Assembly: GCA_028287235.1 (NCBI GenBank)
Contig: JAQBQB010000018.1
Coordinates: forward strand, 124,001-188,000
From: Gemmatimonadota bacterium
Lineage (GTDB): Bacteria > Gemmatimonadota > Gemmatimonadetes > Gemmatimonadales > Gemmatimonadaceae
Length of the DNA stretch: 64,000 nt
Direction of reading: 5' to 3'
Position 1 is the first letter of the stretch, and the number at the start of each line of letters is the position of its first letter. The translations under genes and the position numbers were made by a program. Shown piece by piece: positions 1,804 through 18,480 of the stretch. The notes below the pieces were generated by a model. That model saw only the letters and a program-made list of their open reading frames with translations. It had not been told where the DNA came from and ran no database searches.

Positions 1804-1884
1804 TTCGTGATGTGCGTTTGCGTACTGTTGCGACGTGCTGCGTTCGCTTCTAGAGACGCCCTTAGCGCGCGTTGGCATTTCGAT

Positions 1885-3009: not shown

Positions 3010-3012
3010 TTA

Positions 3013-3904: not shown

Positions 3905-3948
3905 TACCAACGACCTCGCACGTCAACGATTCCGTGTGCGCGGTGCGG

Positions 3949-4146: not shown

Positions 4147-4158
4147 AGAACGATCGGT

Positions 4159-4596: not shown

Positions 4597-4676
4597 TGTG
4601 CTACCCCGCACGATTAATGGGGTTGTGGAGCGGTGTCTCAACGGTCGGTCCGTGCCGCCGTAGGCTGAAGGTGACG

Positions 4677-5027
4677 CTACGCGCCACCCTCTGCGTCGAT
4701 CTGGGCTGCCAACGTGCGCAGGTACTTCTTTCCGGCTGAGCTGAGATCGTCGGATGCGCTCTTACTATACGCGAACAAGAGATATACCGTCAAGTTCTGT
4801 ACCACGTAGTAGTATATCACCCGTGCGCCCCCGCGCGATCCCTTTCCCTTGACCGGAAGGCGGACCTTCCTCAGGCCTCCCGAACCCGGAATCACATCTC
4901 CTGCGGTGGGGTCGGCGAGAAGAATCTCTTCCAGGTGCTGCACTTCGGCGTCCGTGATGGGGACGTCGGACGCTGAGTCAACAAAACTCTCGGTTTGGAT
5001 AAAGTGAAGAAGAGGGGTACGCGACAT
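4677..5027 (-). CDS. RelE/HigB-family toxin
   Basis: The 116-residue protein has the RelE/ParE-superfamily layout. An N-terminal helix region precedes TDAEVQHLEEILLADPTAGD, then the core GSGGLRKVRLPVKGKGSRGG, then ARVIYYYVVQNLTVYLLF and a C-terminal YSKSASDDLSSAGKKYLRTL. This is close to the HigB-2/RelE-like group of toxins with the GlyGlyxRKxR core and the aromatic YYY strand. Such proteins cleave mRNA at the ribosome. The antitoxin follows 80 nt downstream. A strong promoter sits directly against the start codon (see 5033-5061), implying a leaderless or nearly leaderless toxin message. Confidence 0.8.
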   Translation of the reverse strand: MSRTPLLHFIQTESFVDSASDVPITDAEVQHLEEILLADPTAGDVIPGSGGLRKVRLPVKGKGSRGGARVIYYYVVQNLTVYLLFAYSKSASDDLSSAGKKYLRTLAAQIDAEGGA

Positions 5028-5032
5028 GATTA

Positions 5033-5061
5033 AATGTACTACTGTGTGGTATGCTTGTCAA
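5033..5061 (-). promoter_or_regulatory. sigma-70-type promoter of the TA operon
   Basis: On the minus strand TTGACA (5061-5056) is followed after exactly 17 bp by TACATT (5038-5033). The toxin ATG begins at 5027, five bases after the -10 hexamer, so the expected transcription start falls on or next to the ATG. The region is AT-rich compared with its surroundings. Confidence 0.65.
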
Positions 5062-5069
5062 GCGTGTTC

Positions 5070-5705
5070 TCATGTCGGGCGAAGTCCCCTTGCGGCTTTC
5101 CATCGTTCTCGACTTGCTCGCGGATCGGAGCTGTGCATCTGCCGCTCGAGCTTCTCGAACGCTTCGAACACCTTTCGCTCATCGTCAGTCGCGGCCAACA
5201 CGAGCTCCTGTATGTCGACCCCGTCCCAGTCGTCGAGGGAAATGGGTTCGTCGCCGGAAATGGCGGTTGTGTCGGCGAGCATGTCGGGATCGATCGACGA
5301 TCGCGCTGACGCGGCCTCGTCGTCGGATTCTGATTCACACATGAGGAGGCTCGCCCATCGCCAAGCTTCCTTGTGCCACCACCGCACCCATTGCTCGCCG
5401 GCGAGCTGCTGGCTTGGAATGACCAGTCGTTTCCGTCCGAACCTGTCGGTCAGCCAGCGGCGGTGGAGACGGACGTACTGGGGCCGATTGATCTCGTGGC
5501 TGCGCACGATTTCGATGGCGTGCCAGATCACTCGTCGGCGGGCCGTTTCCAGAGACAGCCTCTCGCGCGATGCCCACGCCACCAACGCGGCGTGAACCGA
5601 ATGCGAACGTCTCCATTTGTCAGCGAGGCTCGCGACATCCGGATCAGATTCGGCGAGAGGTAGTGTGCCGATCGAGGTACAAACGCCACTGCCGCGGCGG
5701 CTCAC
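5070..5705 (-). CDS. hypothetical protein of element A
   Basis: This 211-residue protein is not recognised. It is rich in Arg and Trp in its N-terminal half (RRRVIWHAIEIVRSHEINR, then EQWVRWWHKEAWRW) and acidic in the middle (SESDDEAASARSSID, then DDWDGVDIQELVLAATDDE), ending in a helical basic tail. The GTG start at 5703-5705 follows a GAGGG with seven-base spacing. It is the first gene after att copy 2 on the minus strand and lies just upstream of the TA promoter. Codon pattern and a good ribosome site make it likely to be real. A DNA- or RNA-associated role is only a guess from composition. Confidence 0.55.
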   Translation of the reverse strand: MSRRGSGVCTSIGTLPLAESDPDVASLADKWRRSHSVHAALVAWASRERLSLETARRRVIWHAIEIVRSHEINRPQYVRLHRRWLTDRFGRKRLVIPSQQLAGEQWVRWWHKEAWRWASLLMCESESDDEAASARSSIDPDMLADTTAISGDEPISLDDWDGVDIQELVLAATDDERKVFEAFEKLERQMHSSDPRASRERWKAARGLRPT

Positions 5706-5846
5706 TGCTCGCCCTCAGGACGTGCAGTGGAACACCGAAGCCGGTGCGCGAGCTTGTGTGCCGAGACTCTGCTTTGACGTGCGCGGGTTGAATGGCCCGC
5801 TGAGTGGCCCAAACGAAAACGGCGCCCACCGCTGAGCGCCGTAAGT

Positions 5847-5902
5847 CCAACGGAGGGCGAGGGATTCGAACCCCCAAGTCCTTGCGGACGCCAGTTTTCA
5901 AG
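5847..5902 (-). repeat. att core copy 2, junction of elements A and B
   Basis: This is an exact 56-bp copy of the tRNA-Ser 3' half. Its left flank shares CGCCGTAAGT with copy 3 and its right flank starts TTC as in copy 1, so it is the hybrid site expected between two tandem integrants. It has no 5' tRNA half and should not give a functional tRNA. Confidence 0.9.
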
Positions 5903-5951
5903 TTCCGGGTTAGCCTTTTCGCCCGTTTCTAACATACTCTATTTCCCTGCT

Positions 5952-5978
5952 AAACCCCGACACCGAGCGTCGGGGTTT
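5952..5978. terminator. hairpin terminator next to att copy 2
   Basis: A 10-bp perfect stem (AAACCCCGAC / GTCGGGGTTT) with a 7-nt loop is followed on the plus strand by a run of five T. It lies 75 bp beyond the stop of the tape-measure gene (minus strand), so it probably acts in both directions and insulates element B from element A. Confidence 0.7.
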
Positions 5979-6053
5979 TTGCGTCTCTCTCGACGGTTTC
6001 CCTTGGGTTTGCGCCTGAATGTTCCCAGAACCTTCCCATCCGCGCTGCTCAGA

Positions 6054-9000
6054 TCATCTGTGGTTGTCTGCGGTGTAGCGCTGCCGACGCAATTCGGTCT
6101 CTTGGGACTTCACCGATTTATTCACGCTACCAATAGCATCAATGATCCCTGTGAAGCCCGTGCCCTGCTGTCGCACGATCGCTTTCTGTTCGCTCGAGTT
6201 ATCCTGCCGCAGTCCAGTGACCTCGGTCCGGAGTGCGCCAACCTCGGTCCGAAGGGCGCGAATCTCGGTGACCAAACCCTGATTTCCGCCCCCCGAGAGC
6301 ATCGACGATAGATCGTTGTTGCTCACAATGTGCGACGGACCGGTGACCTCGAGCTCAGGTCCGTGCTCGCCGACGACGCGCGCGCCGCCGGCGAAGTCTC
6401 CGCCGGACGCGAAGCCGGGAACGCCAAACTGCGTGGCGCCCGTGAGCGGATCGACATAGAACGACTGGGCGCCGGGTGGCACTAATGGTTGGATCGGTTG
6501 GTACGGCATGATCGGCGTCGGCGTCGGTGCACCGGGCTGGCCAGGATCGAAGTAGTTCGGCGGGAGCACCAGGTGAATGCCGTGAATCGCGTCGATCTGC
6601 CGCGCCACGCCGTTATCGTAGATCCCCTGGAGCCGGACGACCTCGCGAACCTGCGGCGAGTCGTACCCGTAGATCTTGGCGGTCTCGGTGAGTTGGCGCG
6701 CGTAGTAGTCGTCCTGCGCGGTCTTCTGGAGATCGAGCTGACGCACGGCGTCGAGCGTCGCGAGTTCCTGCGCGCTGGCCCCGTGATTGATGGCGTCGAT
6801 TTCCTGCTGCGTCACGCGCGTGAGATCGTTCTGGTTCCCGACCAGAATGTCGCGCTCGCCGGTGACGATCTCGCGACCGACGCCCGAGAGCGTGTCACGC
6901 AGGGTGTTGAACTGGTCGATGAGCGCCCCGTTCGGCGCCAGCGCCGCGTCGCGTGAGCGCTCGAGCTCTCCGATGACGGCGTCTTTCGTCAGTCGCGCGA
7001 GCGTGTTCGCGTCTTGCAGCTTCGCAAGCTCGTCCTGCATCAGCGCGATTTGCGCATTGAGCGCGTCGACCGTCTGCTGCTGGAGGGACGCCTGCTTGCT
7101 GTACTGCGATGCGAGCGTATCGGTCATCCCGCTCACCGTGTTGAAGATGTCGACATACGCCGACGTCGAGGCGTAGTCGCTCTTCGCGAGCTGGAGGTAG
7201 CTATTCGCCGCGCCGCCGAACTGGCCCGCGGCCGTCGCGTCGCCGCCCTGCGCTTTCGCGTAGAGCGCGTCGACCTGCGCCTTGGCCGCGTGGAGTTGGT
7301 CCAGTGGCGACAGCGGCGAGAGAGCGCCGGTCGTAAGGCCGTCGCGGAGCGTGTTGAGCGAGTTCGCCGCCTGCTGGAACGCCTGCAGCGTCGACTGCGC
7401 GATGGTCAGCGCCGACTGCGCGGTCTTGAGCTGAGCATTCAGCACGTCCGTCTGCGCTTTGATCTGCTGCTGCGCCTCGAGCTGGCCGCGCTGGAACAGT
7501 TGCACCAACCCAAGCAGTGCGAGCTCGTCGGGCTTGGCGCCGGCGGCGACCGCCGCGTTCGTCGCGACGCGCTGCTGCTCGGCGAGCGTCGCCTTCGCGG
7601 CGGCGTTGACCTGGCCGGTCAGCGTGAGGAATTGCGTCGCCAGCGACGCCATGGAGACGGTGTACCGCTCGGCCGCCGCTTTCGCCGCGTCGGACGCGGT
7701 CTTCTGGTCCTCCATCGCCTGCGTGAGCTTGAGCGCCGCGATCTGATCAGCAGTCCACCCAGCCTTGACGGCGGCATCGATCTCCTTCCGCTCCGCTTCC
7801 TGTCGAGCGAGCGCGTCGCCCTCGTCCTTGAGCCCAGCTGCGTACAACTGCCGCGTCTTAAGCGAGACGTCGACCTGGCGCGACGCCTCGGCCTGGGCAT
7901 CGGCAAGCGCTTTCGCTTCCGCCGTCTGCGCGGCGAGGATCGCGGTCACCTGATCCGAGTTCGCGCCGAACTGTTTCGTCGCGGCAGCCACCTCGTTTGT
8001 GTACTTGAGTTGCAGCGCGAGCGCATCCGCTTCACGAGTCAGCCCCTCAGCGCGGAGAATGCGCTCTTGCGCCGACTCGAGCGCGTCGGCACGAGCCTTC
8101 CGGTCGGCTTCGATCGCCTGCCGTTGAGCGAGGTTTTCATCGATCGTTGCTTGGGCGAGATCCTTCTCGCGCTGGACCTGCGCTTTGAGGCCCGGCTCGG
8201 CAGCGTCGATCGCATCCTTGAGCGCTTTGTACTGCGCAGTGATCTGCAACTGCGTGGCGTCTAGCGCCGTGCCGGTGCCGACGGAGGCGTTCGCCTGCGC
8301 CAGGTTGATGCGGACGGACTCTACGGCTTTTTGTAGGGCCTCGGCAGCCTTCCGGTGAGCGTCCGCGGCGCCCATCAATCCTCCGATGACACCAGTGAAT
8401 CCGCCAATGACTGCTCCCCACGGGCCCCCTAGTTCGAATCCAGCCGCTGCTCCGCCGACTGCGCCGCCCAGAATCCCCGTCGTTGTGCTGCCGGACTGCT
8501 GCCCGACGCTGAACCCGATCGATGCGCCGGCGAGTCCCGCCCCCATCAACTGGATTCGCTTGAGATACTCAGCGTATCGTTCGGAGTCGCTCGCATACTT
8601 CGCCGCCTCCCGCGCCGCGTGATCCTTGTCGGCCTGGGACCTCGCCGCCGCTTCAGCCTTGCGCGCTTCAGCTTGTTTCTTGGCCATCCCGTCGAGATCT
8701 GCGCTCAACTGCCGGAGCAGGTGAGCGGATCCAGCCTCCGCAGCCCTGAACATCGACGTCCACGACACCGAGCCGCCGCGCGTGGCTTGATCGAGGGCGT
8801 GCAATAGATCGCCGCCGAGAATCTTCGAGAGATTCGTGTACTGGTCCGCCTGGTCGCGGATTGCCTTCTCGTTGTCGGCGCCGGTCTTGGCAATCGCCTT
8901 CGTCTGATCGTTCAGCCATCTCATGGCGTCGGCGGTGTCCTTCATGGCGGTCGCCTGACGAATCGTCGTGGCGTTCTGACGTTCGTCCGCGTCGATCGCG

Positions 9001-10526
9001 GCGAGACGATCACTCAGCGCGACGCCTTCATAATCGTGCTGCGCGACGAGCCGCTGCGCCTGATGATCCAGGTGGTCGGCTAGGAGCTCGCGCGCCTCGC
9101 CCTCCGTGTGGAGGAGGGCGTTCTTCTCGGCAGATTTCGCGAGCTCGACGTTGTCGAGTTCGTTGACCTTCTGCATTGCGGCGATCTGCTTCGCGAGTCC
9201 GTCGAGAACCTTTTGCTGCTCGATGGTATCGATCGGGCCTACACTGACGCGCTCCACATGCGTTTTCGGGTTCATCGCCGCATCAAGTGACTCGGCTTGG
9301 GTGATGAGTGCCAAACGACGCACGTTGTCAGTCTGAGATTTGCCGAGCGCCTCGATCTCGGCGATGTCTCTCTTGTACAGCGCGATTGCGCGAGCGCGCT
9401 CGTCTTCTGTGGCGTGACCACTCTTGATCAGCGATGCCAGTTGATCGGCGTAGGCTTGATCCGACTCGGCCTTGGTCGCGTAGTCGATCTGCGACTTTCT
9501 CGCCTGCCACTGTTCGAGATCCGTTTGCGCCTGAAGGAGGTTTCTCTTTGCGCGCGCGACCTCATCTGCGTTGACCGGTCCGTCCTGCGAGTAGCCTCCG
9601 AGCGTGGCGTTGTAGCGCGATGATCCCGCAGATACCTTCGCCAGCGCATCTTGAGCAGCCGTGACTGCGGACCGTGCGGCACCGACCTGCAAATCGCCCA
9701 TCGCCATTTGCGCGGCGAACGTTTCGTCCTTCACTTTCTTCATCGCGGCGGCGACTCTCTCTGCGAACTTGTCAGCGTCACTCTCAAGCTGTTTCCACGC
9801 GAAGGACAACGCGGCCACGCCGGCGAGGACGCCGATCATCACGACCTGACCTACCCCGAATGCGCCAAGAAGCGACGCCCCGAGCCGATCGATCACCGGC
9901 AGCGTTCCCGTTGATCGGGCAACCAGGGAGAGAAGCCCTTGGCGCACGCGGCCCAGGCCCGCACCAGAGAGGTCGAATGACAACCCCGCAGCCGCATTCG
10001 ATGTGGCCATCTTCTCGTTCATCGCTATAGCTTCGATCTGCGCCAGCGTCATCGCCCGACTGGCATCGGTCACGCGCGATGTCGACCCGACCGACGTCGT
10101 TTGCGCTGCGACCAGTGCATCCTCCGCGGCCGTCAACTGCACGAGCTGGTCGGTTGCCAGGCCGAGCGAGGTCGCCTTCTCGCGGAGCCCGCGCGCCGAT
10201 GCGCTCAGCAAGTCGATGCCGGTGGCGCTCACGCCGTTCAGGTTCTGTGTGCTCTGCGAGAGCGTCGCAATCTGCTGCTCGAGCGCGCGGAGCGCCGCGC
10301 GCGATTGATCGTACTCGGCGCGCCCCTCCGCCTGCTGGCGTCCCATCTGCTCGTTGACGTCAATGAGCCGCTGCGTCGACGCTGCGTTGCGATCGATGCC
10401 AGTCGCGCTTTCCACGGCCGCGGTGCCGACAGCGCGAAGCCCCGCCGCGGACTCGTCGAGGGTTTGTTTCGCCCCCGGCGCTCCGATGAGGACGTCGAAT
10501 GATGCTTGGCTATCGCTCGTGGACAT
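6054..10526 (-). CDS. phage tail tape-measure protein
   Basis: This 1490-residue protein has the features of siphovirus tail length tape measures. There is a long Ala/Gln/Lys-rich helical body with coiled-coil pattern. Hydrophobic Gly/Ala-rich segments lie at about residues 210-245 (VGQVVMIGVLAGVAALSF) and 665-732 (GILGGAVGGAAAGFELGG). The C-terminal motif GGARVVGEHGPELEV, found near the end of many tape measures, is followed by a heptad-repeat tail (ALRTEVGALRTEV). A GAGGAG ribosome site precedes the ATG. In phages it sets tail length at roughly 0.15 nm per residue, so this one would fit a tail of about 200 nm. It is the largest gene of the element, and no other tail, head or packaging gene accompanies it. 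Confidence 0.85.
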   Translation of the reverse strand: MSTSDSQASFDVLIGAPGAKQTLDESAAGLRAVGTAAVESATGIDRNAASTQRLIDVNEQMGRQQAEGRAEYDQSRAALRALEQQIATLSQSTQNLNGVSATGIDLLSASARGLREKATSLGLATDQLVQLTAAEDALVAAQTTSVGSTSRVTDASRAMTLAQIEAIAMNEKMATSNAAAGLSFDLSGAGLGRVRQGLLSLVARSTGTLPVIDRLGASLLGAFGVGQVVMIGVLAGVAALSFAWKQLESDADKFAERVAAAMKKVKDETFAAQMAMGDLQVGAARSAVTAAQDALAKVSAGSSRYNATLGGYSQDGPVNADEVARAKRNLLQAQTDLEQWQARKSQIDYATKAESDQAYADQLASLIKSGHATEDERARAIALYKRDIAEIEALGKSQTDNVRRLALITQAESLDAAMNPKTHVERVSVGPIDTIEQQKVLDGLAKQIAAMQKVNELDNVELAKSAEKNALLHTEGEARELLADHLDHQAQRLVAQHDYEGVALSDRLAAIDADERQNATTIRQATAMKDTADAMRWLNDQTKAIAKTGADNEKAIRDQADQYTNLSKILGGDLLHALDQATRGGSVSWTSMFRAAEAGSAHLLRQLSADLDGMAKKQAEARKAEAAARSQADKDHAAREAAKYASDSERYAEYLKRIQLMGAGLAGASIGFSVGQQSGSTTTGILGGAVGGAAAGFELGGPWGAVIGGFTGVIGGLMGAADAHRKAAEALQKAVESVRINLAQANASVGTGTALDATQLQITAQYKALKDAIDAAEPGLKAQVQREKDLAQATIDENLAQRQAIEADRKARADALESAQERILRAEGLTREADALALQLKYTNEVAAATKQFGANSDQVTAILAAQTAEAKALADAQAEASRQVDVSLKTRQLYAAGLKDEGDALARQEAERKEIDAAVKAGWTADQIAALKLTQAMEDQKTASDAAKAAAERYTVSMASLATQFLTLTGQVNAAAKATLAEQQRVATNAAVAAGAKPDELALLGLVQLFQRGQLEAQQQIKAQTDVLNAQLKTAQSALTIAQSTLQAFQQAANSLNTLRDGLTTGALSPLSPLDQLHAAKAQVDALYAKAQGGDATAAGQFGGAANSYLQLAKSDYASTSAYVDIFNTVSGMTDTLASQYSKQASLQQQTVDALNAQIALMQDELAKLQDANTLARLTKDAVIGELERSRDAALAPNGALIDQFNTLRDTLSGVGREIVTGERDILVGNQNDLTRVTQQEIDAINHGASAQELATLDAVRQLDLQKTAQDDYYARQLTETAKIYGYDSPQVREVVRLQGIYDNGVARQIDAIHGIHLVLPPNYFDPGQPGAPTPTPIMPYQPIQPLVPPGAQSFYVDPLTGATQFGVPGFASGGDFAGGARVVGEHGPELEVTGPSHIVSNNDLSSMLSGGGNQGLVTEIRALRTEVGALRTEVTGLRQDNSSEQKAIVRQQGTGFTGIIDAIGSVNKSVKSQETELRRQRYTADNHR

Positions 10527-10759
10527 CCAGACTCCTCAACGCCTCACGGCGTGGTCGTGTGTAATCAGGTGCAGCTGGTGAGTGCGTCTTGCCGTACCTC
10601 CCCGAACGACTACTCCGGCAAGAGTGCACTCGGAAAACTATCGCTGGCGCGCGCGCTAGCTGTATTCTCGGCCAGTCTCCATGCTGGGTGATTTCCGAGT
10701 CGTTCCCGTGTCACAGAGAGAATCTTCTCGAATGCCCCCTCTCGAGATGTGATGACGTA

Positions 10760-11170
10760 CTAGCGGAGATACTTCTGGTTGAGCTTCGCGAGCTCGCGCT
10801 GGTACTCGGGCTCGAGCGCTTGCTGGCGCGTCATGCGCGCCTGGTCGCTCATGTTGTCGGCCAACTGGAGGATCTCGGCGGCCTGCCGATCGCGCGCGCT
10901 GCGCTCGTCGTCGAGCGACTTCGGCGTTGCGCCCTCGGGCAGCACGCGGAGCTTGGCCGTGGCAACGAGTTCTTGGTGCGCAGACAGCGATGCGCCGTCG
11001 GTGACGTGGATGTACGCGAGCGTGAAGCTCCCGTCCATCTGCTGGGCGTACTGCTGGTGCTTCTCCTTCGGCACGAACTGCAGGTTGGCCAACGTGAGGG
11101 GCAACGGCCCGTTCGCGTTCACCGGTTGCGCGCCTGGCAAGTCGCCGGCGTTGTCGTTTTTGTCAGCCAT
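10760..11170 (-). CDS. unknown element B protein, paralogue of the preceding gene
   Basis: This 136-residue protein starts at MADKNDNAGDLPG. Its middle part (LPLTLANLQFVP, then GSFTLAYIHVTDGASLSAHQ and AKLRVL) matches the product of the overlapping upstream gene at many positions. Its C-terminal half is a helical, Arg/Gln-rich extension (SDQARMTRQQALEPEYQREL) that the paralogue lacks. The gene overlaps the upstream one by 8 nt and lies 233 bp before the tape-measure gene. The position recalls the tail chaperone pair of siphoviruses, but no programmed frameshift site is seen, and the family is unknown to me. Confidence 0.6.
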   Translation of the reverse strand: MADKNDNAGDLPGAQPVNANGPLPLTLANLQFVPKEKHQQYAQQMDGSFTLAYIHVTDGASLSAHQELVATAKLRVLPEGATPKSLDDERSARDRQAAEILQLADNMSDQARMTRQQALEPEYQRELAKLNQKYLR

Positions 11171-11573
11171 CGAGAACCTCGAGAGTGTTGGCGGCGATCC
11201 GGCGCTGGTGCGCCGTGACCGATACGGTGTCGGATGCGAACACGTAGGCGAGGTTGAACTGACTGCCGACGTGTCGGTATTGCGGGTGGACGCTATCGGG
11301 CAGGCCATCGAGCGTCGTGACGTTCAGCGGAAGCGGTCGGTCAGTCCGGTTTCTCCCGGCCGCGGCGTCATCGGCACGAAGCGGTGCCACGGTGTGCTCG
11401 GCGGGATCGAAGTCGTCGTGATTAATCAGAACCGTCCCGCCTGTAACCTCGTCGTCAACGACTCGAACGGTGGCGAGACGAGTATGGTCTGGGTTCCACG
11501 ACACGGGCGGCCCCATGTAGTCCTGATCGTGCGGGTGCGGTGCGAAACGGGATGCAGCAGAGTCGTGATTCAT
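11163..11573 (-). CDS. unknown element B protein, first of a tandem paralogue pair
   Basis: This 136-residue protein has an N-terminal acidic and His-rich stretch and a C-terminal domain (LPLNVTTLDGLPDSVHPQY, then GSQFNLAYVFASDTVSVTAH, then AANTLEVLDG). That domain shares a conserved pattern with the next gene: Leu-Pro-Leu, a Phe-x-Leu-Ala-Tyr core, an Asp-x-x-Ser step, Ala-His-Gln and a terminal Leu-x-Val-Leu. The ATG at 11571-11573 follows TGAGG with seven-base spacing. Both paralogues are 136 residues long although their extra regions lie at opposite ends. Function is unknown. A tail-associated or DNA-associated role is only inferred from position. Confidence 0.6.
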   Translation of the reverse strand: MNHDSAASRFAPHPHDQDYMGPPVSWNPDHTRLATVRVVDDEVTGGTVLINHDDFDPAEHTVAPLRADDAAAGRNRTDRPLPLNVTTLDGLPDSVHPQYRHVGSQFNLAYVFASDTVSVTAHQRRIAANTLEVLDG

Positions 11574-11617
11574 CAAACGGCCTCAAAGGTGAGAGAACTG
11601 TGAACGTGGGCTAACTG

Positions 11618-11866
11618 TCAGACTTCGGTGTGTGCGCTCTCGCGGCGTTGCGACGGCGGCGCCGTTCGCGGCAGCCTCACCGGTCCGCCGTGGTGAGCCA
11701 CGATCTCGTAGCCGCGAGCACGCAGACGGGAGCGCGTGGCGCGCGCGTTCGGGTGCCAGTCGCCAGCGGGATGCGTAACGGCCGCGCGGCGGTTGCCGTA
11801 GTCGTGGACGGTCGCCGGCATGTCGAGGTCGTTGGGGTCGGTTGGCTCGGGCGGATACCAGGTCAT
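11618..11866 (-). CDS. 82-aa hypothetical protein, element B
   Basis: A small protein starts MTWYPPEPTDPNDLDMPATV and contains HPNARATRSRLRARGYEIV, which resembles a short DNA- or RNA-binding helical segment followed by a disordered basic tail. Its ATG overlaps the stop of the replication gene in an ATGA arrangement, so the two are translationally coupled. No family is recognised. A GC-rich overlapping frame exists on the same strand but lacks this coupling. Confidence 0.5.
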   Translation of the reverse strand: MTWYPPEPTDPNDLDMPATVHDYGNRRAAVTHPAGDWHPNARATRSRLRARGYEIVAHHGGPVRLPRTAPPSQRRESAHTEV

Positions 11867-12936
11867 GCGACGGCCTCCATTTTTCCAATCTGGATTGCGT
11901 TGGCTTCGAGGCGCGTGACGATCTCCCATTCGACCTTGTCGGCCGGGAGCGTGCCGATCCGGTCCCAAAGCTTGATCGTCTTCATGTCGTTGGCGAAGGT
12001 CGGCCAAGCAGTCGGATCGGTCGCGGCAGTATCGAGGCGCGCGAAGTAGTCGTCGTTGGCGCCGCCTGTTCGCCAGAGGTTGTACTTGTCGCAGAGCGCG
12101 CTGATGCGTTTCGCCAGTGCCATCATTTGCCCCTTGCCGCTGCTCGTCGCAGCTGCGCGTACAGTCGGCGCGTCGTAGGGCTCCGACCAGCGCTCGTCTG
12201 GACCGAAGAACGTCTTCGCCTGCATCACGAATTCGGTTTGCAGCTTGCCCGTTGATGCGCAGAAGCGAGCGTAGCGCTCGACGCCGGCGTGCATGTCCTC
12301 CGCGGTGACGCCTGCCGTCCGACGCGCCTGCCAGGCCTTGAACGCGGCGTGCTTGGGCTGGTTGCCAGCGCGAGGCGGGTAAATGGCCCACGTTGCAGCG
12401 AATGCGTCGGGGTACGCGTGCTTTTGCTGTTTTGTCGAACCGCCGTCAGCCGACCTCGCTGCTGGTGCGTCGTCAGACGTACCAAGAGTTGTTGCTTTTA
12501 ACTGAGTAAGAGACAGAGACAGAGTGTTGACGTTTGGTTGCCCCTGTGGTTGGTCAATGGTACCAACTGTGGTTGAACCACCCTTGGAACCACCGTTCAA
12601 CCTTGCTTGAGCACTGGCGACACCACCCTGACGCGACTTCTCGCGCCAGTCCGCTTGCTTGGCTCGCTCGGCATCGAGACGCGGGTTGTACTGTTTCCCG
12701 TCGCGCTCGACGAAGCAGCGGGAGACGCGCTTCCACGCCGCGCGGAACTTCGGTTGCGTCGTCCGAGTCCAGCGCGCGAGCTCCTCTTCGTCGAACACGA
12801 ACCCGACCTCGTTCCACTCGAGGCAGAGTAGCAGCACGTAGACGCCGACCTCTTCGGACGTCATGGTGCCGACCTTGCCGGAGCCGACGAATTCGTCTGG
12901 GTAGAACTGGAAGGCGGGAGATTTATTGGCGGTCAT
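11863..12936 (-). CDS. DUF1376-type phage replication protein
   Basis: The N-terminus FQFYPDEFVGSGKVGTMTSE, then EVGVYVLLLCLEWNEVGFVF and WKRVSRCF is the DUF1376 (YdaU-like) domain found in phage replication initiators and helicase loaders. A low-complexity linker with Gly/Ser/Thr/Gln follows (about residues 110-170). The C-terminal part FAATWAIYPPRAGNQPKHAA, then FKAWQARRTAGVTAEDMHAG resembles the C-terminal domain of lambda O/DnaT-like phage replication proteins. It is translationally coupled to genes on both sides (4-nt overlaps at 12933-12936 and 11863-11866). It probably recruits host replication machinery to the element's origin, which may lie in the gene's AT-richer linker segment near 12480-12560. 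Confidence 0.75.
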   Translation of the reverse strand: MTANKSPAFQFYPDEFVGSGKVGTMTSEEVGVYVLLLCLEWNEVGFVFDEEELARWTRTTQPKFRAAWKRVSRCFVERDGKQYNPRLDAERAKQADWREKSRQGGVASAQARLNGGSKGGSTTVGTIDQPQGQPNVNTLSLSLTQLKATTLGTSDDAPAARSADGGSTKQQKHAYPDAFAATWAIYPPRAGNQPKHAAFKAWQARRTAGVTAEDMHAGVERYARFCASTGKLQTEFVMQAKTFFGPDERWSEPYDAPTVRAAATSSGKGQMMALAKRISALCDKYNLWRTGGANDDYFARLDTAATDPTAWPTFANDMKTIKLWDRIGTLPADKVEWEIVTRLEANAIQIGKMEAVA

Positions 12937-13367
12937 CGCGCCTGGTCCCTGCGGGGCGACGACATCTGCCCGCGTTCGATGATCTCCTCATGCTCGGCGA
13001 TCCACGTTCGGATCTCGCTGGCGACGAACACCAGCTCCCCGTCGAGCTTGCGATACGGCAGGAGTGCTACGCCCGTCTTTGTCGACGTGTGGCGGTAGCA
13101 CCACGACAACGGCCGGCCGATCGCCTCCGCGAGCTCGCGCACTCCAAGCCGCGTCTCGGCGGGTGCGACCCATAGTCGTTCGCGCCACGTCGCCGGCGTC
13201 TCCGCGGCGATCGGTATGGCTGGGTCGGCGAGCGTCGGGGTGATCTCGACGAGCTGCGCGTGCAGCGCGGCAGCGTCGAGCTTCGTGCCCGGCAGGGCCG
13301 CGCCCAGCCACTCGATGAGCGCCGGAAGCGAGTTTGGAGTACTCGTCCTTCCCGAGTTGCTTCCCAT
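12933..13367 (-). CDS. MerR/excisionase-like HTH protein
   Basis: The 144-residue protein has a C-terminal half that looks like a winged-helix excisionase or plasmid-replication regulator (LGVRELAEAIGRPLSWCYRH, then ALLPYRKLDGELVFVASEIR, then TWIAEHEEI). In such domains the helix-turn-helix is followed by a wing containing the LPYRKxxGxxxF pattern, which is clearly present. The N-terminal half is Ala/Pro-rich and unassigned. It precedes the DUF1376 gene with a 4-nt overlap. A role in replication control or directionality of integration is inferred from the domain and position. Confidence 0.65.
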   Translation of the reverse strand: MGSNSGRTSTPNSLPALIEWLGAALPGTKLDAAALHAQLVEITPTLADPAIPIAAETPATWRERLWVAPAETRLGVRELAEAIGRPLSWCYRHTSTKTGVALLPYRKLDGELVFVASEIRTWIAEHEEIIERGQMSSPRRDQAR

Positions 13368-13369
13368 GC

Positions 13370-13495
13370 TTACGCGCTCGCGAACGCAAGTCGTTGCGAG
13401 CGCAGACGATTGCGCGGCCCAGCGCTGCGGTCTGTGTAACTGCTGCTCGACTGCGGCGGACCTACCCGACGCTGCAACAGCGTTGGTGAAGTCAT
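13370..13495 (-). CDS. possible 41-aa bridging ORF
   Basis: The ATG overlaps the stop of the upstream HTH gene (TGATG) and the TAA lies 2 nt before the next start codon, so it fills the gap exactly and would keep ribosomes moving through the operon. The product (MTSPTLLQRRVGPPQSSSS onward) is basic and shows no motif. It may be only a coupling ORF or not a real protein. Confidence 0.3.
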   Translation of the reverse strand: MTSPTLLQRRVGPPQSSSSYTDRSAGPRNRLRSQRLAFASA

Positions 13496-13737
13496 CACGC
13501 GCCGACCACCGCAGCGTGATGGTTGAGCTTCGATGGCGACTTGGTGAGCTCGCGCGCGCGCTTCAGGCGCTTCACCGACTCCTTGGTAACCCACCACCTG
13601 CCGCTGACTTCTTCACGAAAGCCGTCCAACACGCCTTTCTGCACGCGTCCGTAAATCCAAGTCGTATTTTCACCGAGCTCAATACCAGCCTGTGCGGCTG
13701 GCATGTAGTTCTCGGCAAGGTCTGCACGTATCGTCAC
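13495..13737 (-). CDS. small HTH DNA-binding protein
   Basis: The 80-residue product contains a helix-turn-helix of the excisionase/AlpA kind (MPAAQAGIELGENTTWIYGR, then VQKGVLDGFREEVSGRWWVT, then KESVKRLKRARELT). The WWVTKESV wing ending is typical of Xis-like proteins. The GTG at 13735-13737 follows AGGGAG with six-base spacing. A longer frame reaches 13935 but its extra N-terminal residues look random. The gene opens the replication operon of element B and lies 549 bp downstream of the integrase stop. Confidence 0.55.
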   Translation of the reverse strand: MTIRADLAENYMPAAQAGIELGENTTWIYGRVQKGVLDGFREEVSGRWWVTKESVKRLKRARELTKSPSKLNHHAAVVGA

Positions 13738-14285
13738 CGTCGGCTCCCTGGGTTGGAGAAACGTGTTCGTCTCTCTCTCAGGGTAGATGCTCGGCCAATT
13801 CGCGACAATGTGAATTGCTGCGATGGCGTCGTGTTTTGGTACGGAGTGGGACGGTGAGAGGGCTACGTCTACGCAAGTCGATGCGCGCGCTGTGTTTAGA
13901 TAACTGACATTGCTGCGCCGCTGCACTTGAGCCACTCCAACGGCGCTCTTAACCGGCTGGAACGCTGGTTTGGCAACCCAGCCCCGCTACAGCAATCATC
14001 CTCTGTGAGAGCAGAGGTAGGCCCTTGAGCGGCACTACTCGCGGCACGAGTCCGCGAAAACCCGCTCCCCTGCAGCACAAGTCGCGATTTCGAGCCTGGG
14101 TGCTCCGTTCTCGCCGGAAGGAGGCTGCATCAGAGAAGTCTAAAACGCACGGCCTCGATTTCGTCGGGGTCGTGTCGGGGTAGACGGGGACCGAATCAGG
14201 CGTCGCGTGAGGGCCTCCCCCCTATGAAACACGCTCTTTCAGCGTACCCCGACGTACTTCACTGTGTCGGGGTAGGCGGGCAGGT
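13738..14285. other. gene-free stretch of element B with structured sites
   Basis: There is no convincing gene between the integrase stop and the small HTH gene. The stretch holds three perfect short hairpins (13964-13982, 14000-14017, 14039-14057) and a cluster of GTCGGGGTA motifs (14174-14182, 14245-14253 inverted, 14266-14274, plus a one-mismatch copy at 14163-14171). Promoters for the minus-strand operon must also lie here. It may contain a small RNA, integrase accessory sites or a replication origin. Confidence 0.5.
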
Positions 14286-15461
14286 CTACGCTTGCTTCTC
14301 CGACGTCGGCGATGCGACGGCCGCGAGCGGCGCAACGAGCGAGCGCAGGTGTTCCTTCGACAGGTGCGTGTACCCCATCGTGGTGCGCAAGTCGGAGTGG
14401 CCCAGCGCCTCCTTCACGTGCACCGGGTTGGCGCCGCCGGCGAGCCACGTCGTCACCCGCCGATGGCGCAGGTCGTGACGGTGGAAGGCGTCAGGAATGC
14501 CCGCGGCAGCGGCGGCCGTGTCGAACGCCGAGCGCATCGACTTCACGCGCTGGCCAGCCTTGCAGCCCCGGCGATCGCGCTCGTGGTGGAACACCCACGG
14601 CGAATGCACGCCGTGATACGTGACGAGACGGACGCGCGCGGCGTGATCGCGAAGCGCCTGGTGCAGCCGCGGCGTCATCGGCACGAAGCGAGATTTCCCG
14701 CTCTTCGTCCGGTGCCCCTCCTCGCCGCTCCGGATCTCGAGGAACCCTTCAGCCAGATCGACGTCGGTCCAGCGCAGGTGTAGCACCTCGGAGAGGCACC
14801 GGCCGCCTGTCTCGCCGAGCGCGAGTGTGTAGAGCCAGAGTTGCGGGCTGTGTTCACACTTCGCTAGCAACGTCTCGTACTGCTCGTCGCTGAGCAGGAC
14901 CGGCGAGCGCGGGTCGGCCTTGGGCTGCTCGACGCGCGCGACCGGGTTGCCCTCACGGAGCTCAAGGCGATCGGCGAAGTCGAAGAGCCGATGCAGCACG
15001 GCCCGATCTTTCTGGAGCGTGCGGTTGGAGATCGGCGCGGTCGACGGCGTCTGATGCTTGCCGGCGCGGCGCTGCGTGCGACGCCACGACAGATAGCCCT
15101 TCACTTCCTTCGTGCCGATCCGATCCAGCGTCGGGTCGCCGAGCTCGCCGGCGACAAAGTATTCCTCGAGCATCGTGAACGAGTCACCGTAGGCGCGTCG
15201 CGTACCCGGGGCGAGGCCTGGGACCTCGTCGCGTCGGTAGAGCGCCAGCAGTTCCGAGAATCGCGTGTCGTGATCGACACCGCGGCGTGAGCGATCGCGT
15301 TGTTTCATGAGCTCGCGGTGCTTCTCTCTGGCGAACTTTTCCGCGGCTTTGCGATCGAACGTGTCGAGACGGTACGTGTAGCGCCTTCCGCCGCAGTACA
15401 GGATCAACCGCTGATGCGTCCCGCGGTTCTCGAATGTGCCTGGATGCTTCTTGGCCATCAC
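14286..15461 (-). CDS. tyrosine-family integrase
   Basis: The 391-residue protein has an N-terminal arm-binding segment (YCGGRRYTYRLDTFDRKAAE), a SAM-like core-binding domain (about 65-165) and the catalytic domain. The catalytic residues are visible: Arg221 in ETGGRCLSEVLHLRW, the HDLR motif at 329-332, His355 in EALGHSDLRTTMGYTHLS and the nucleophile Tyr364. It should recombine within the tRNA-Ser anticodon-loop att core. It overlaps the preceding gene (ATGA) and so is cotranscribed with it. It is placed unusually: 2.9 kb from att copy 3 and 8.4 kb from copy 2, whereas integrases normally abut an att site, as the truncated one in element A does. Confidence 0.92.
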   Translation of the reverse strand: MMAKKHPGTFENRGTHQRLILYCGGRRYTYRLDTFDRKAAEKFAREKHRELMKQRDRSRRGVDHDTRFSELLALYRRDEVPGLAPGTRRAYGDSFTMLEEYFVAGELGDPTLDRIGTKEVKGYLSWRRTQRRAGKHQTPSTAPISNRTLQKDRAVLHRLFDFADRLELREGNPVARVEQPKADPRSPVLLSDEQYETLLAKCEHSPQLWLYTLALGETGGRCLSEVLHLRWTDVDLAEGFLEIRSGEEGHRTKSGKSRFVPMTPRLHQALRDHAARVRLVTYHGVHSPWVFHHERDRRGCKAGQRVKSMRSAFDTAAAAAGIPDAFHRHDLRHRRVTTWLAGGANPVHVKEALGHSDLRTTMGYTHLSKEHLRSLVAPLAAVASPTSEKQA

Positions 15462-15775
15462 TCAACCTCAGATTTCACCAAAGATAGCGACGGCGGCACG
15501 GGCTTCGGGCCGCCGGGAATCATTTGGATAGACTCACGTAGAAGCCGGATGCCCTCAGCGGTCACAGCACACGCATCGTCAGCGTCCTTTCTGATCTGCC
15601 GAATCGCGGCGAACGCCGTGCGCTGCGCTTTTACGAGTTCGGCAATGCTCTCCATGGTGGTTACGGCGACAGCGGCGACGGAACGAACCTCCGCGCGGAG
15701 TTGCATGTGTGCCGCGACGAGCTCATTGAAGGTCGTCGGCACATCCTCGTCCTCGCGCTCGTCCTCGTCGCTCAC
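15458..15775 (-). CDS. 105-aa hypothetical protein upstream of integrase
   Basis: An acidic N-terminus is followed by a continuous amphipathic helix (FNELVAAHMQLRAEVRSVAA, then MESIAELVKAQRTAFAAIRQ), suggesting a small coiled-coil protein. The GTG start at 15773-15775 overlaps the stop of the SWIM gene, and its own stop overlaps the integrase start, so all three are coupled. No family is recognised. It could be an integration partner or a structural helper. Confidence 0.55.
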   Translation of the reverse strand: MSDEDEREDEDVPTTFNELVAAHMQLRAEVRSVAAVAVTTMESIAELVKAQRTAFAAIRQIRKDADDACAVTAEGIRLLRESIQMIPGGPKPVPPSLSLVKSEVE

Positions 15776-16086
15776 GCGGTCCGCTGCCGTCGTGCGCGCA
15801 TCGTCCGGATCTCGCGGTCCGCGTCGGCGAGCAGCCGGCCGAGTATCAACACCAGGTCGCCATCGCCGACGTGCAGCCGCGCCGCGAGCTCATGGAGACA
15901 CGGGCCGCCGCGGACCTGCGCATCGCGGCAACGGCACGACGCCGGCTCGTCGAGATCGACAAGGTAGTGCGGCTCGTGGCGACCCTCGACGAGGAAGCGG
16001 TTCGCGCCGACGCGCGTGACGACGCGTGCGGCAGCGCGACGCAAACGGTCGGGGTCGACGGTCGGGCAGGGTAGGGTATTCGGCAT
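15772..16086 (-). CDS. SWIM-like zinc finger protein
   Basis: The 104-residue protein contains VVTRVGANRFLVEGRHEPHY, then DEPASCRCRDAQVRGGPCLH, which gives a Cys-x-Cys followed by Cys-x-His, the SWIM zinc-finger signature. The short strand segment before it also fits SWIM domains. SWIM fingers bind DNA or protein and occur in transposases, MEKK1 and phage proteins. The ATG at 16084-16086 follows GAGGG with seven-base spacing. A longer frame to 16230 lacks support. It starts the three-gene coupled unit that ends with the integrase. Confidence 0.65.
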   Translation of the reverse strand: MPNTLPCPTVDPDRLRRAAARVVTRVGANRFLVEGRHEPHYLVDLDEPASCRCRDAQVRGGPCLHELAARLHVGDGDLVLILGRLLADADREIRTMRARRQRTA

Positions 16087-16112
16087 GCGGGTACCCTCGG
16101 ATACGGGTTCGG

Positions 16113-16496
16113 TTACGCGACCCTCAGTTGGCGGCGCACGCCTTTGCCGCTCCTGGCGAGCGCGCCAGCGTTCAGGAAAACCCATTCGAGCAGCATCAGA
16201 TCGCCCTTCTTGCTGTTGCAGGATCTGCACGCCGGGACAACGTTTTCCCTGGTGTGCGAGCCTCCGCGACTGATTGGAATGACGTGATCCATCCCAAGTT
16301 GATCCTTACCAATTCCGGTCGGGCGCCGATCGCAGTAGGCGCATCGGTATTCATACCGAGCGCAGGTCTCTAGCCACTCGTACATCGAGAAATTGCTTTC
16401 GCCGGCATCGCCTCCCAACAACGGAGCGTAGTGTCCTACTCGGCGCTCAGCATTCAGGCAGTCGCGTCGCGCAAACCGAGTGATCCTTAGCATCAT
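16113..16496 (-). CDS. HNH endonuclease
   Basis: The protein has the complete HNH layout. CAYCDRRP supplies the first zinc knuckle, LGMDHVIPISRGGSHTREN the catalytic His and structural Asn, and VPACRSCNSKKGD the second CxxC. Nothing but the nuclease domain is present, plus a short N-terminal tail. The start near 16496 (MMLRITRF) was chosen over a longer Arg-rich extension. In phage-like elements such nucleases help packaging or act as homing nucleases. No terminase is present here, so a homing or anti-competitor role is as likely. It lies between the repressor and the SWIM gene. Confidence 0.82.
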   Translation of the reverse strand: MMLRITRFARRDCLNAERRVGHYAPLLGGDAGESNFSMYEWLETCARYEYRCAYCDRRPTGIGKDQLGMDHVIPISRGGSHTRENVVPACRSCNSKKGDLMLLEWVFLNAGALARSGKGVRRQLRVA

Positions 16497-16525
16497 GGCA
16501 TAAGAATGCCGTATGTGTGCATCGC

Positions 16526-16771
16526 TCACGTCCGCCGCCGCTTCTTCGGCGGATCGATTACGTCGGGCTGATACTGCAATAGGTCGCCGACGTCGCAACC
16601 GAACGCACGGCAAAGCGCGTCCAGCACCTTTAGCGAAATGCGCACATCGGTATTTGGACGCTCGCTAACCAGCCGATAAACGGTCGGTTGCGGCAGGCCG
16701 GATTCTTGGGCGAGCCGATAGGCCGACCATTTCCGCTTCTCGAGAAGCTGCGCCAGTCGAAAGACGATCAC
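16526..16771 (-). CDS. XRE/YozG-like HTH repressor
   Basis: The translation IVFRLAQLLEKRKWSAYRLA, then QESGLPQPTVYRLVSE, then SLKVLDALCRAFGCDVGDLL is the compact Cro/C1-type domain of YozG-like regulators. The GTG at 16769-16771 was chosen because an AGGTG lies six bases upstream and the family starts at this point. An ATG at 16822 would add 17 non-conserved residues. The gene points away from the plus-strand operon at 17012, and palindromic operators lie between them, the layout of a lysogeny switch. It probably controls both directions. Confidence 0.8.
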   Translation of the reverse strand: MIVFRLAQLLEKRKWSAYRLAQESGLPQPTVYRLVSERPNTDVRISLKVLDALCRAFGCDVGDLLQYQPDVIDPPKKRRRT

Positions 16772-16807
16772 TCGGGCACCTGTTGGAGTACCCGAAGATG
16801 ATATGCG

Positions 16808-16879
16808 CGTGTGCACGGTCATGTAACTAATGTAAACGTGTGCACGCTATTGCGCTATACTAACGCATATGTTAGTATA
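16808..16879. promoter_or_regulatory. operator region of element B genetic switch
   Basis: Between the repressor and the divergent operon lie a near-perfect palindrome with 9-bp arms (TATACTAAC, six-base spacer, GTTAGTATA; 16856-16879) and two copies of CGTGTGCACG (16808-16817 and 16838-16847) spaced 30 bp apart. The region is markedly AT-richer than its surroundings. These are good candidates for repressor binding sites governing the divergent promoters. Confidence 0.6.
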
Positions 16880-17011
16880 CGGCTACAACAGAAACGGGAC
16901 CGCTCGGCGCATCCCCGCTAAGAGATGCCGAACGATCCCGCCCACGCACCCCGAGGGGCACGCACCTGCAGTATACAGGTCGCCGCGCCCCTCGACAACC
17001 GGAGAGGGATG

Positions 17012-17305
17012 ATGATGCTCACCGCCGATGGCGCCTACCTCCTGCAGGATCCGACCGAGTACGAAGCGCAGCTCGAGTATCGCCGCGAGCGCGAGCCGCG
17101 CGCGATCGTCGCCGAGCGTGAACGGGCGCGCAGCGCGTTCGTCCAGTCCGCCGAGCGCCACGGCGCGCCGGCGAGCGCCGAGCCAGCCACGCCCGCGGCG
17201 CGTACCAGCCGTATCGACGTCGCCGCGACGTTCGCGAAGCTGTTCGACGCCCATTACTGCGACGGCGACGCGACTTACCCATGGGGCATGCGGGGGGCAC
17301 TCTGA
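17012..17305 (+). CDS. hypothetical protein, first gene of divergent operon
   Basis: The small protein starts at one of three consecutive ATG codons (17009-17017). GGAGAGGG at 17001-17008 gives best spacing for the second or third. The sequence ADGAYLLQDPTEYEAQLEYR, then REREPRAIVAERERARSAFV is a charged helix, followed by a Pro/Ala linker and a conserved-looking end (TFAKLFDAHYCDGDAT). No family is recognised. It is the promoter-proximal gene opposite the repressor, so it is likely among the first genes expressed on induction. Confidence 0.5.
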   Translation: MMLTADGAYLLQDPTEYEAQLEYRREREPRAIVAERERARSAFVQSAERHGAPASAEPATPAARTSRIDVAATFAKLFDAHYCDGDATYPWGMRGAL

Positions 17306-17985
17306 TGGCCGCGCCGATGCATCTACCCGTCGATGGGATTCGGGATCTTGACGACGAAGCGCTGTTCGCGCTGTGGGCTCGCGAAGTCGGAGATACGCCA
17401 TGGGAGGACATGACGCCTCGCCAAAGCGAGATCCATATCGAGCGCAAGCGACGGCGAGCCAGCGCGCACTTCGCGGGAGGGGCATCACGGTCCGTCATCG
17501 TGCAATCGAACGTCCTGCCGGCTGAGCGAGCGTTCGCCGCACACATCCTCTCACGTGCGTGGGCGTACCTCGGATGGTCAGTCGACGACGTTTACAGCCA
17601 CTACCGAACAGTCTTGCCCAACGATCTACTGCTAACGCACGAACAGATTCTCGAGTGCGTCGACGGCCGGAGATTTCCAGAGGAACACATGATCGTCAGC
17701 GCCGAGCGGGCAATGCGGCACACGGCAGAAAAGATTTGCGGAAGGAAGATCGAACCCGACGAATCTTATCCGTTCGCGCGCCCGCGGCCGCCGCGGCATA
17801 TCAGTCGCTTGCTCGCCGGCTTGTCGCTTCTCCGGATGACGGCCACGGCGCGCAAAGCGTTCTGGGTTTTCCTGACCGATGGGAAGGATGATCTGTCGCT
17901 ATCCGGCGCTTGGGTGCCGCAACTCGCAGCGCTATTTCCGGAAGTCGATGTCAGCGTGAAGGGCGTCGCCGGGAGGATCCGCTGA
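17305..17985 (+). CDS. 226-aa hypothetical protein, element B
   Basis: The ATG overlaps the preceding stop (TGATG). The protein reads as a folded, mostly helical protein with aromatic residues (ALFALWAREVGDTPWEDMT, then HILSRAWAYLGWSVDDVYSH, then LLRMTATARKAFWVFLTDGK). I recognise no domain. It is the middle gene of a three-gene operon opposite the CI-like repressor, the place where phages and satellites keep early regulators, replication or anti-host genes. Its composition is like that of the neighbouring element genes. Confidence 0.5.
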   Translation: MAAPMHLPVDGIRDLDDEALFALWAREVGDTPWEDMTPRQSEIHIERKRRRASAHFAGGASRSVIVQSNVLPAERAFAAHILSRAWAYLGWSVDDVYSHYRTVLPNDLLLTHEQILECVDGRRFPEEHMIVSAERAMRHTAEKICGRKIEPDESYPFARPRPPRHISRLLAGLSLLRMTATARKAFWVFLTDGKDDLSLSGAWVPQLAALFPEVDVSVKGVAGRIR

Positions 17986-18278
17986 TGCCCCGCTCCGCAG
18001 ACGCGCCCGCCTTCGATGTCTTTACGACGAAGCACGCTGATGTCGTATTGGGTATGCGAATCGCCGCACGCGCGACCGTGTTCTCTGACAACCGCGACGG
18101 CGTCGAGGTCGACATCAGCGGTCGTGACTTCGCCCAGACGAGTGCCGGGCCGTCAAACGTTCAGTTCCAAGTACAGAACGCCGAGTCCATTCGCGATCTC
18201 GCGCGGACGCTGCTACGGCTCGCCGATACGGCAGAAGCGGCCGGCATCTTCCGTGACTTCACCGTGAGCACCCGCTGA
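17985..18278 (+). CDS. 97-aa hypothetical protein, element B
   Basis: The ATG again overlaps the preceding stop (TGATG). The product (FDVFTTKHADVVLGMRIAAR, then ATVFSDNRDGVEVDISGRDF, then SIRDLARTLLRLADTAEAAG) looks like a small alpha/beta protein with strands first and a helix at the end. No family is recognised. The gene ends 120 bp before the tRNA-Ser att copy, so it is the element's last gene on this side. The intervening 118 bp show nothing beyond the att flank. Confidence 0.5.
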   Translation: MPRSADAPAFDVFTTKHADVVLGMRIAARATVFSDNRDGVEVDISGRDFAQTSAGPSNVQFQVQNAESIRDLARTLLRLADTAEAAGIFRDFTVSTR

Positions 18279-18393
18279 TGATCGCCGGCGACACGGAGGA
18301 TCAGGGGGCAACGGTTGCCCTGGCCGATCGGCGAAGAAACCTTCCCCAAAGCTTCCCGAGGCTCTCCACGCGTAACCGTCGAACGCCGTAAGT

Positions 18394-18449
18394 CCAACGG
18401 AGGGCGAGGGATTCGAACCCCCAAGTCCTTGCGGACGCCAGTTTTCAAG
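18394..18449 (-). repeat. att core copy 3, inside the intact tRNA-Ser
   Basis: This is the third 56-bp identical copy. Here the core continues into the complete tRNA gene. The left flank CGCCGTAAGT is shared with copy 2 and therefore belongs to the element side. The core ends in the anticodon loop (CTTG), so crossover takes place in the anticodon region. Confidence 0.9.
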
Positions 18450-18480
18450 ACTGGTGCAATAGCCATTCTGCCAGCCCTCC
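18398..18480 (-). tRNA. tRNA-Ser (anticodon TGA)
   Basis: The minus strand folds as a class II tRNA. A 7-bp acceptor stem (GGAGGGC / GCCCTCC) is followed by a D arm and the anticodon arm CCAGT-CTTGAAA-ACTGG, with TGA at positions 34-36. A long variable arm (GTCC-GCAA-GGAC) is diagnostic of Ser, and the T arm contains TTCGAAT. The CCA end is not encoded. It decodes UCA/UCG codons. It is the integration target for elements A and B, and the incoming att copy restores the 3' half, so function is kept. Confidence 0.95.

What the first reader, a model, noticed from the sequence alone, without database searches (positions are those of the whole stretch)
17012..18278. Divergent three-gene operon of unknown proteins controlled by the element switch
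Three genes linked by TGATG overlaps face the repressor and lie next to the tRNA. Phages and satellites often keep induction, anti-defence or helper-interference genes there, and none of the three proteins matches a family I recognise.
Basis: inference. Interest (0 to 1): 0.5.

Follow-up and report, generated by a model that had tools for sequence, protein, structure and literature searches.

The report
Unknown operon behind small-RNA switch
A mobile DNA element carries three unknown genes behind a control region that seems to hold a repressor gene and a small structured RNA; the same control region was found in two other species of the family, and in one of them it faces three different unknown genes.

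Summary
The operon is real. A (17009-17305), B (17305-17985) and C (17985-18278) are joined by two TGATG overlaps, have coding-type codon use, run divergently from an HTH_26 regulator and end 119 nt from tRNA-Ser. They sit in a 12.5 kb element between 66-nt repeats of the tRNA-Ser 3' half. A, B and C have no significant match in Pfam, PHROGs, NCBIfam, PADLOC or PDB sequences, and no credible relative in 394 other genomes of the phylum. Models of B and C were unusable (pLDDT about 40); A was not modelled.

The unexpected part is the gap between regulator and operon. It holds a ~80-nt structured element on the regulator's strand: promoter-like site, two hairpins, terminator-like end. The same element precedes an HTH_26 gene in two other species. 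In one it also faces three unrelated small genes, a few kb from a terminase-like gene; in the other the divergent frame does not look coding.

Best reading: ABC is exchangeable effector cargo of a phage-satellite-like element, held off by the repressor and probably by an antisense or leader RNA, and acting on helper phage or host when switched on. Anatomy is shown, regulation inferred, function untested.

The parts
17009..17305 (+). gene A, 98 aa (start 17009, 17012 or 17015)
17305..17985 (+). gene B, 226 aa; TGATG overlaps with A and with C
   Evidence: model unusable, pLDDT 39.8
17985..18278 (+). gene C, 97 aa
   Evidence: model unusable, pLDDT 42.9
16526..16771 (-). HTH_26 (PF13443) regulator, 81 aa from GTG 16771 (98 aa if ATG 16822 is used)
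16970..16998 (-). promoter-like site TTGTCG-N17-TATACT; its outer edge lies 10 nt from ATG 17009
   Evidence: the only match to TTGTC[CG]-N17-[TG]ATNNT on either strand of the window
16884..16963 (-). candidate small RNA or terminated leader, ~80 nt, two hairpins, end GGUCCCGUUUCUGUUG; ends of the RNA are predicted
16856..16879 (.). palindrome TATACTAAC-N6-GTTAGTATA, possible operator; contains -10-like TATACT on both strands
   Evidence: an arm of 9 or more with loop up to 12 in 60 of 5000 shuffles of the region; 0 further copies in the window
16808..16817 (.). CGTGTGCACG, first copy, possible operator
   Evidence: 2 in the window, 0.61 expected; 11 of 100 shuffles have 2 or more
16837..16846 (.). 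CGTGTGCACG, second copy, 29 nt on
18384..18449 (.). att repeat at the tRNA end, 66 nt identical to 5837-5902
5837..5902 (.). att repeat at the far end of the element
18398..18480 (-). tRNA-Ser(TGA), integration site
14286..15461 (-). tyrosine integrase of the element
   Evidence: PF00589 4.4e-23; phrog_1 2.3e-56
6054..10526 (-). tape measure protein, 1490 aa
   Evidence: phrog_19487 9.9e-10 on its C-terminal third; 30% identical over 451 aligned columns to the TMP-position protein of a phage contig in the genus; whole-protein scan gave no TMP hit
11863..12936 (-). DnaD/primosomal-type replication protein
   Evidence: phrog_9327 1.8e-30; PF07120

Best explanation
A 12.5 kb phage-satellite-like element integrated in tRNA-Ser carries ABC as exchangeable effector cargo next to its attachment site. 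ABC is kept silent by the adjacent HTH_26 repressor, whose operators would be the palindromes at 16856-16879 and perhaps 16808-16846. It is also restrained by the ~80-nt RNA made from the opposite strand: this RNA either pairs with the ABC leader or, as a terminated leader, tunes the repressor. When repression is lost (helper infection or entry into a new cell), ABC is transcribed as one translationally coupled message, and its small soluble products act on the helper phage or on host defence. Shown: the genes, their coupling, the att repeats, the recurrence of the intergenic element. Inferred: operator binding, transcription of the RNA, antisense action. Guessed from context: the targets of A, B and C.
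For: att repeats of 66 nt around the element; integrase, DnaD-type protein and tape measure protein, and no terminase, portal or capsid match among the ten proteins scanned. Intergenic element: 86% identity over 72 nt in G025 and covariance match E 6.3e-5 in G398, each upstream of an HTH_26 gene on the same strand. TTGTC[CG] with a 17-nt spacer to a -10-like hexamer in 3 of 3, the only such site in this window. Hairpin 2: four inner pairs differ on both sides between window and G398 and still pair. The fold is better on the regulator's strand in 3 of 3, z -4.5, -4.8 and -1.4. In G398 the element faces three small genes with positive codon scores, unrelated to A, B and C, about 3 kb from a terminase-large-like gene. 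Accessory status: of 13 distinct loci with a related integrase, 8 share the small HTH-like gene at 12933-13367 and 0 share A, B or C at E 0.01. Literature: PICIs carry immune systems at either end (PMC11364771, passages); satellites carry anti-phage hotspots (PMC9122126, passages).
Against: No expression data, no homologue, no usable model. In G025 the divergent ORF has a negative codon score (-0.096) and my gene caller did not call it, so clear divergent cargo is seen at only 2 of 3 sites. The G025 fold is weak (25 of 300 shuffles as low). No good + strand promoter was found (best TATACT at 16856 with a 3-of-6 -35). The HTH_26 relatives with the most similar sequence are ordinary chromosomal genes without the element. 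No prophage with a Terminase_6N gene was found in this genome.
Confidence: 0.4

Rival explanations
1. ABC is the early induction operon of the element itself: B or C activates excision or replication genes, and the repressor-RNA pair is its lysis-lysogeny-type switch.
For: It is the only gene set found on the + strand of the element, opposite the repressor. A three-helix stretch of the B model (70-124) resembles HTH DNA-binding domains, including two phage small terminases at Z 5.1-5.4, but on a pLDDT 40 model.
Against: No HTH family hit in B even at E 10. Integrase, replication and tail genes lie downstream of the repressor on its own strand. The genes at the matching place in G398 are unrelated, which is odd for core functions.
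Confidence: 0.27
2. ABC is a toxin-antitoxin or abortive-infection module silenced by the HTH_26 protein as antitoxin or regulator.
For: Small coupled genes next to an HTH gene; C has a sub-threshold Imm32 hit (E 0.12); a RelE-like/HTH pair does exist in the neighbouring remnant (4159-5027).
Against: No PADLOC, Pfam or NCBIfam match for A, B or C.
Confidence: 0.15
3. The structured element is only a promoter plus intrinsic terminator that spread with these elements; it has no regulatory link with ABC.
For: Its 3' part looks like a terminator (GGUCCCGUUUCUNUUG); only three copies are known; the G025 copy has no convincing divergent gene.
Against: Structure is kept with changed letters between window and G398, it recurs with an HTH_26 gene in 3 of 3, and the -35 lies 10-17 nt from the divergent start in 3 of 3.
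Confidence: 0.18

Closest known systems
Phage satellites with their own tape measure protein (PLE of Vibrio cholerae; some cf-PICIs)
   Same: Small integrated element with integrase, replication gene and a tape measure protein but no head genes found; small proteins of unknown family (PLE11 Rta is an 80 aa protein that blocks helper tail assembly). Source: PMC12987554, sections 6 and 8 read in full, other passages seen.
   Different: No homology of A, B or C to Rta was tested; no helper known; unrelated host; no baseplate-hub or chaperone gene recognised; Rta is expressed before infection, whereas ABC appears repressed.
PICI and P4-like satellite cargo regions with immune genes
   Same: Accessory genes at an end of the element, not shared with relatives (PMC11364771 and PMC9122126, passages only).
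   Different: No known immune family in ABC; satellite membership of this element is itself unproven.
Phage antisense or leader RNAs: P1/P7 C4, P4 CI RNA, lambda OOP (recalled, not read here)
   Same: About 80 nt, hairpins, own promoter, terminator-like end, placed between immunity genes.
   Different: No Rfam match to any of 4227 families at E 1 on that RNA; pairing target unproven; different flanking genes.
HTH_26 Cro/C1-type regulators (PF13443)
   Same: Firm Pfam match (9.6e-18).
   Different: Small, single-domain, without the C-terminal part of classical phage CI; nearest relatives in the family are chromosomal.

Membership tests
Phage satellite (PICI/P4/PLE sense) | integrated between att repeats with an integrase | tested here: met
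   66-nt repeats 5837-5902 and 18384-18449; integrase 14286-15461
Phage satellite (PICI/P4/PLE sense) | own replication gene but no complete set of structural genes | tested here: met
   DnaD-type protein; tape measure protein only among structural matches; several small ORFs of the element have no match
Phage satellite (PICI/P4/PLE sense) | mobilised by a helper phage | not testable with these tools
   needs induction; Terminase_6N search of the own genome found 0 of 1
Degraded prophage | broken remnants of head and packaging genes | tested here: inconclusive
   none seen in 5837-18449; tape measure, integrase and DnaD frames are open, but a clean deletion cannot be excluded
Known anti-phage defence system | match to a defence family profile | tested here: not met
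   A, B and C: 0 families in PADLOC at E 10
C4-type antisense RNA (Rfam) | covariance-model match | tested here: not met
   Rfam 15 scans of the window stretch and of L194, L195 gave no such hit at E 1
Cis-antisense RNA | transcript complementary to the target mRNA | not testable with these tools
   geometry allows it if the ABC promoter lies at 16856; a later start inside the RNA gene would leave little overlap
HTH_26 regulator | PF13443 above its cut-off | tested here: met
   64.6 bits against 22; L072 and L197 genes 47.9 and 48.6 bits

The most novel reading that the evidence does not exclude
A new kind of mobile-element control cassette: an HTH_26 repressor and an ~80-nt structured RNA, encoded upstream of it on its strand, jointly lock a divergent slot into which unrelated three-gene effector operons are exchanged. 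In this element the slot holds ABC, which would disable the helper's own tail assembly or the host's defence while the element supplies its own tape measure protein.
Probability: 0.2. Interest if true: 0.8.

Novelty: new variant of a known kind. Interest (0 to 1): 0.5.

Why it matters
If the RNA is real, it is an undescribed small RNA in a phage-type switch, and its conserved sequence is a handle for finding exchangeable effector operons by position rather than by homology. A, B and C would be three new effector candidates from a phylum whose phage satellites I did not find in print (one full-text search pairing 'phage satellite' with 'Gemmatimonad' found 0 papers). The element would also extend tape-measure-carrying satellites beyond the groups shown in PMC12987554.

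Tried and rejected
B relative in G226 (L002, E 9.4e-4): rejected, because it lies antisense to a 603-aa ORF whose sequence reads as an NAD synthetase (named by eye, not by a search).

Fold search with the B model: top Z 5.5, mixed helical and HTH folds, model pLDDT 39.8; not used as evidence of function. The C model was not searched.

ORF0 (47 codons) and the 37-codon ORF after C: rejected on codon score.

Leisingera plasmid hit to the RNA region (E 0.09): inside a helix-turn-helix coding gene, taken as chance.

Pattern GCGTGGGCGGGATCG in viral contigs (capped at 120 stretches): of these, 100 were searched with model R1 (best E 0.46) and the other 20 with R2 (best L174, 20.2 bits, E 0.013, not followed). 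Pattern GGTCCCGTTTCTNTTG: 22 contigs, 0 of 22 matched R2 at E 1. G027 match (27 bits, E 0.01): no HTH gene called in the 3 kb around it; not counted.

L047 weak match to R1 (E 0.0099): antisense to the start of a called DnaB-like gene; not found by R2; not counted.

Empty-site comparison: genes left of the element were not found next to tRNA-Ser in the relatives fetched, so the empty site was not shown.

A, B and C against L197's divergent genes: no match by BLASTP or hhalign. A was not modelled; A and C were not searched in plasmids or genome contigs; nothing was searched in metagenome contigs.

Full report
Observation. The three genes exist as described: A 17009-17305, B 17305-17985, C 17985-18278, joined by TGATG at 17303-17307 and 17983-17987. 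With a codon model trained on 17 long ORFs of the window, A, B and C score +0.285, +0.062 and +0.169 per codon, and six competing ORFs over them score -0.07 to -0.39. B is the weakest, and inside A one antisense stretch scores as high as A; the HNH gene, certainly real, scores negative, so the measure is imperfect. The regulator is PF13443 (9.6e-18) and probably starts at 16771, leaving a 237-nt gap to A.

Setting. Direct repeats of the tRNA-Ser(TGA) 3' half stand at 1748-1803, 5837-5902 and 18384-18449. The element that holds ABC spans the last two, 12,547 nt start to start. It encodes an integrase, a DnaD-type protein, a SWIM and an HNH protein, the HTH_26 regulator and a 1490-aa tape measure protein; among the genes called in the element only ABC and one weak 46-codon call (10551-10691) are on the + strand. 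No head or terminase gene was matched among the proteins scanned. An older remnant with an integrase fragment next to a transposase-like ORF lies at 1748-5902. Ten integrase relatives from a scan of genome contigs all carry Gemmatimonadota, Gemmatimonadetes, Gemmatimonadaceae or Gemmatimonadales titles, which places the host; the phylum name is inferred from that.

Homology of A, B and C. No family in Pfam at E 10 except two sub-threshold hits for C, none in NCBIfam or PADLOC; PHROGs only E 0.21 for A and 0.52 for B. PDB sequences: B none, C best E 0.92, A best E 0.69. tblastn in phages: none for A, B or C; in plasmids B only, none. Viral contigs: none for A, B or C. Genome contigs: B only, none. 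Whole genomes of the phylum: A 1 of 395 and C 1 of 395, the own genome; B 2 of 395, the second being spurious. These profile-free searches reach close relatives best. Thirteen distinct loci carry an integrase related at E 1e-20 or better (three other loci have weaker hits; five duplicates merged by equal contig length); 8 of 13 share the gene at 12933-13367 and 0 of 13 share A, B or C at E 0.01. Several loci are cut by contig ends, so absence is partial.

The intergenic element. A search with the 237-nt gap in 99 genomes of the family found one other genome, G025, 86% identical over 72 nt, just upstream of an HTH_26 gene. A covariance model of the two, run over 47 relatives of G025, matched 3 of 47 at E 0.1: G025 itself, G398 (E 6.3e-5) and a weak G027 hit that I set aside. 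In G398 it again precedes an HTH_26 gene. All three show TTGTC[CG], 17 nt, then TATACT, GATATT or TATCTT, then two hairpins and GGTCCCGTTTCTNTTG. The promoter-like site is unique in the window. Predicted RNAs are 76-81 nt. Shuffle tests on the regulator's strand: z -4.46 (0 of 300 as low), -1.39 (25 of 300) and -4.82 (0 of 300) for window, G025 and G398; the other strand is -2.48, 0.27 and -0.22. In hairpin 2, aligned by hand, four inner pairs change on both sides between window and G398 and remain pairs; G025 agrees with the window in two of these and lacks the other two. Rfam has no counterpart. The element was absent from the other held relatives searched: 30 loci with R1 and 30 with R2, sets largely the same.

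Divergent side. In G398 three genes of 100, 141 and 101 aa, all with positive codon scores, run away from the element; unlike ABC they are spaced by 20 and 108 nt, not overlapped. They are unrelated to A, B and C and have no Pfam or PHROG match; a terminase-large-like gene (phrog_2, 3.9e-22) lies about 2.7 kb beyond the last of them. In G025 the only divergent frame has a negative score, so exchange of cargo rests on two sites. The promoter-like -35 of the RNA lies 10, 12 and 17 nt from the divergent start. Any promoter for the divergent genes must therefore overlap the RNA gene or lie beyond it, giving antisense overlap or promoter competition. The candidate for ABC is TATACT in the unique palindrome 16856-16879, but its -35 is poor and the scan found no + strand promoter.

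Mechanism. I commit to repressed, exchangeable effector cargo (0.4), because position, rarity, unrelatedness at the matching site and small soluble products (no hydrophobic segment) fit it, with the early-induction operon as the main rival (0.27). The tape measure protein gives a pointed version: PLE satellites make chimeric tails with their own TMP, and PLE11 adds an 80-aa protein that blocks the helper's TMP (PMC12987554, sections 6 and 8 read). A phage contig in the same genus (G312) has terminase, portal and major head proteins and a TMP-position protein 30% identical to this one, so a helper of that kind is conceivable. Nothing ties A, B or C to tails; that step is a guess.

Novelty. The operon proteins are orphans in what was searched. 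The switch has known analogues in kind; the RNA is not in Rfam. I searched the paper library six times and read no paper on such an RNA; that is not proof of absence.

Noticed in passing
6054-10526: Lone 1490-aa tape measure protein in an element without recognised head genes; 30% identical over part of its length to the TMP-position protein of a full phage contig in the same genus (L068). L047 and L021 also pair an integrase with a tape-measure-like protein.
   Followed up: partly
10760-11170 and 11163-11516: Two overlapping small genes upstream of the tape measure gene whose products are 39% identical over 56 aa; possible tail chaperone pair, untested.
   Followed up: no
1748-5902: Second, older element in tandem in the same tRNA-Ser: integrase fragment next to a transposase-like ORF, RelE-like toxin and HTH gene at 4159-5027.
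   Followed up: partly
L043:9757-17000: Small element at tRNA-Ser(TGA) with integrase, AAA protein, terminase small subunit (PF03592 2.5e-20) and terminase-large-like protein; looks like a related satellite.
   Followed up: partly
L197:7369-7890: Peptidase M41-like gene directly after the HTH_26 gene of the G398 module; L021 has a gene with a similar-looking HEAGH motif (by eye).
   Followed up: no
18344-18361: Terminator-like hairpin on the minus strand just past the tRNA 3' end, inside the element (2 sites found against 1.7 expected in shuffles).
   Followed up: no
L174:1643-1741: Weak match of the 3-locus RNA model in a viral contig (20.2 bits, E 0.013).
   Followed up: no
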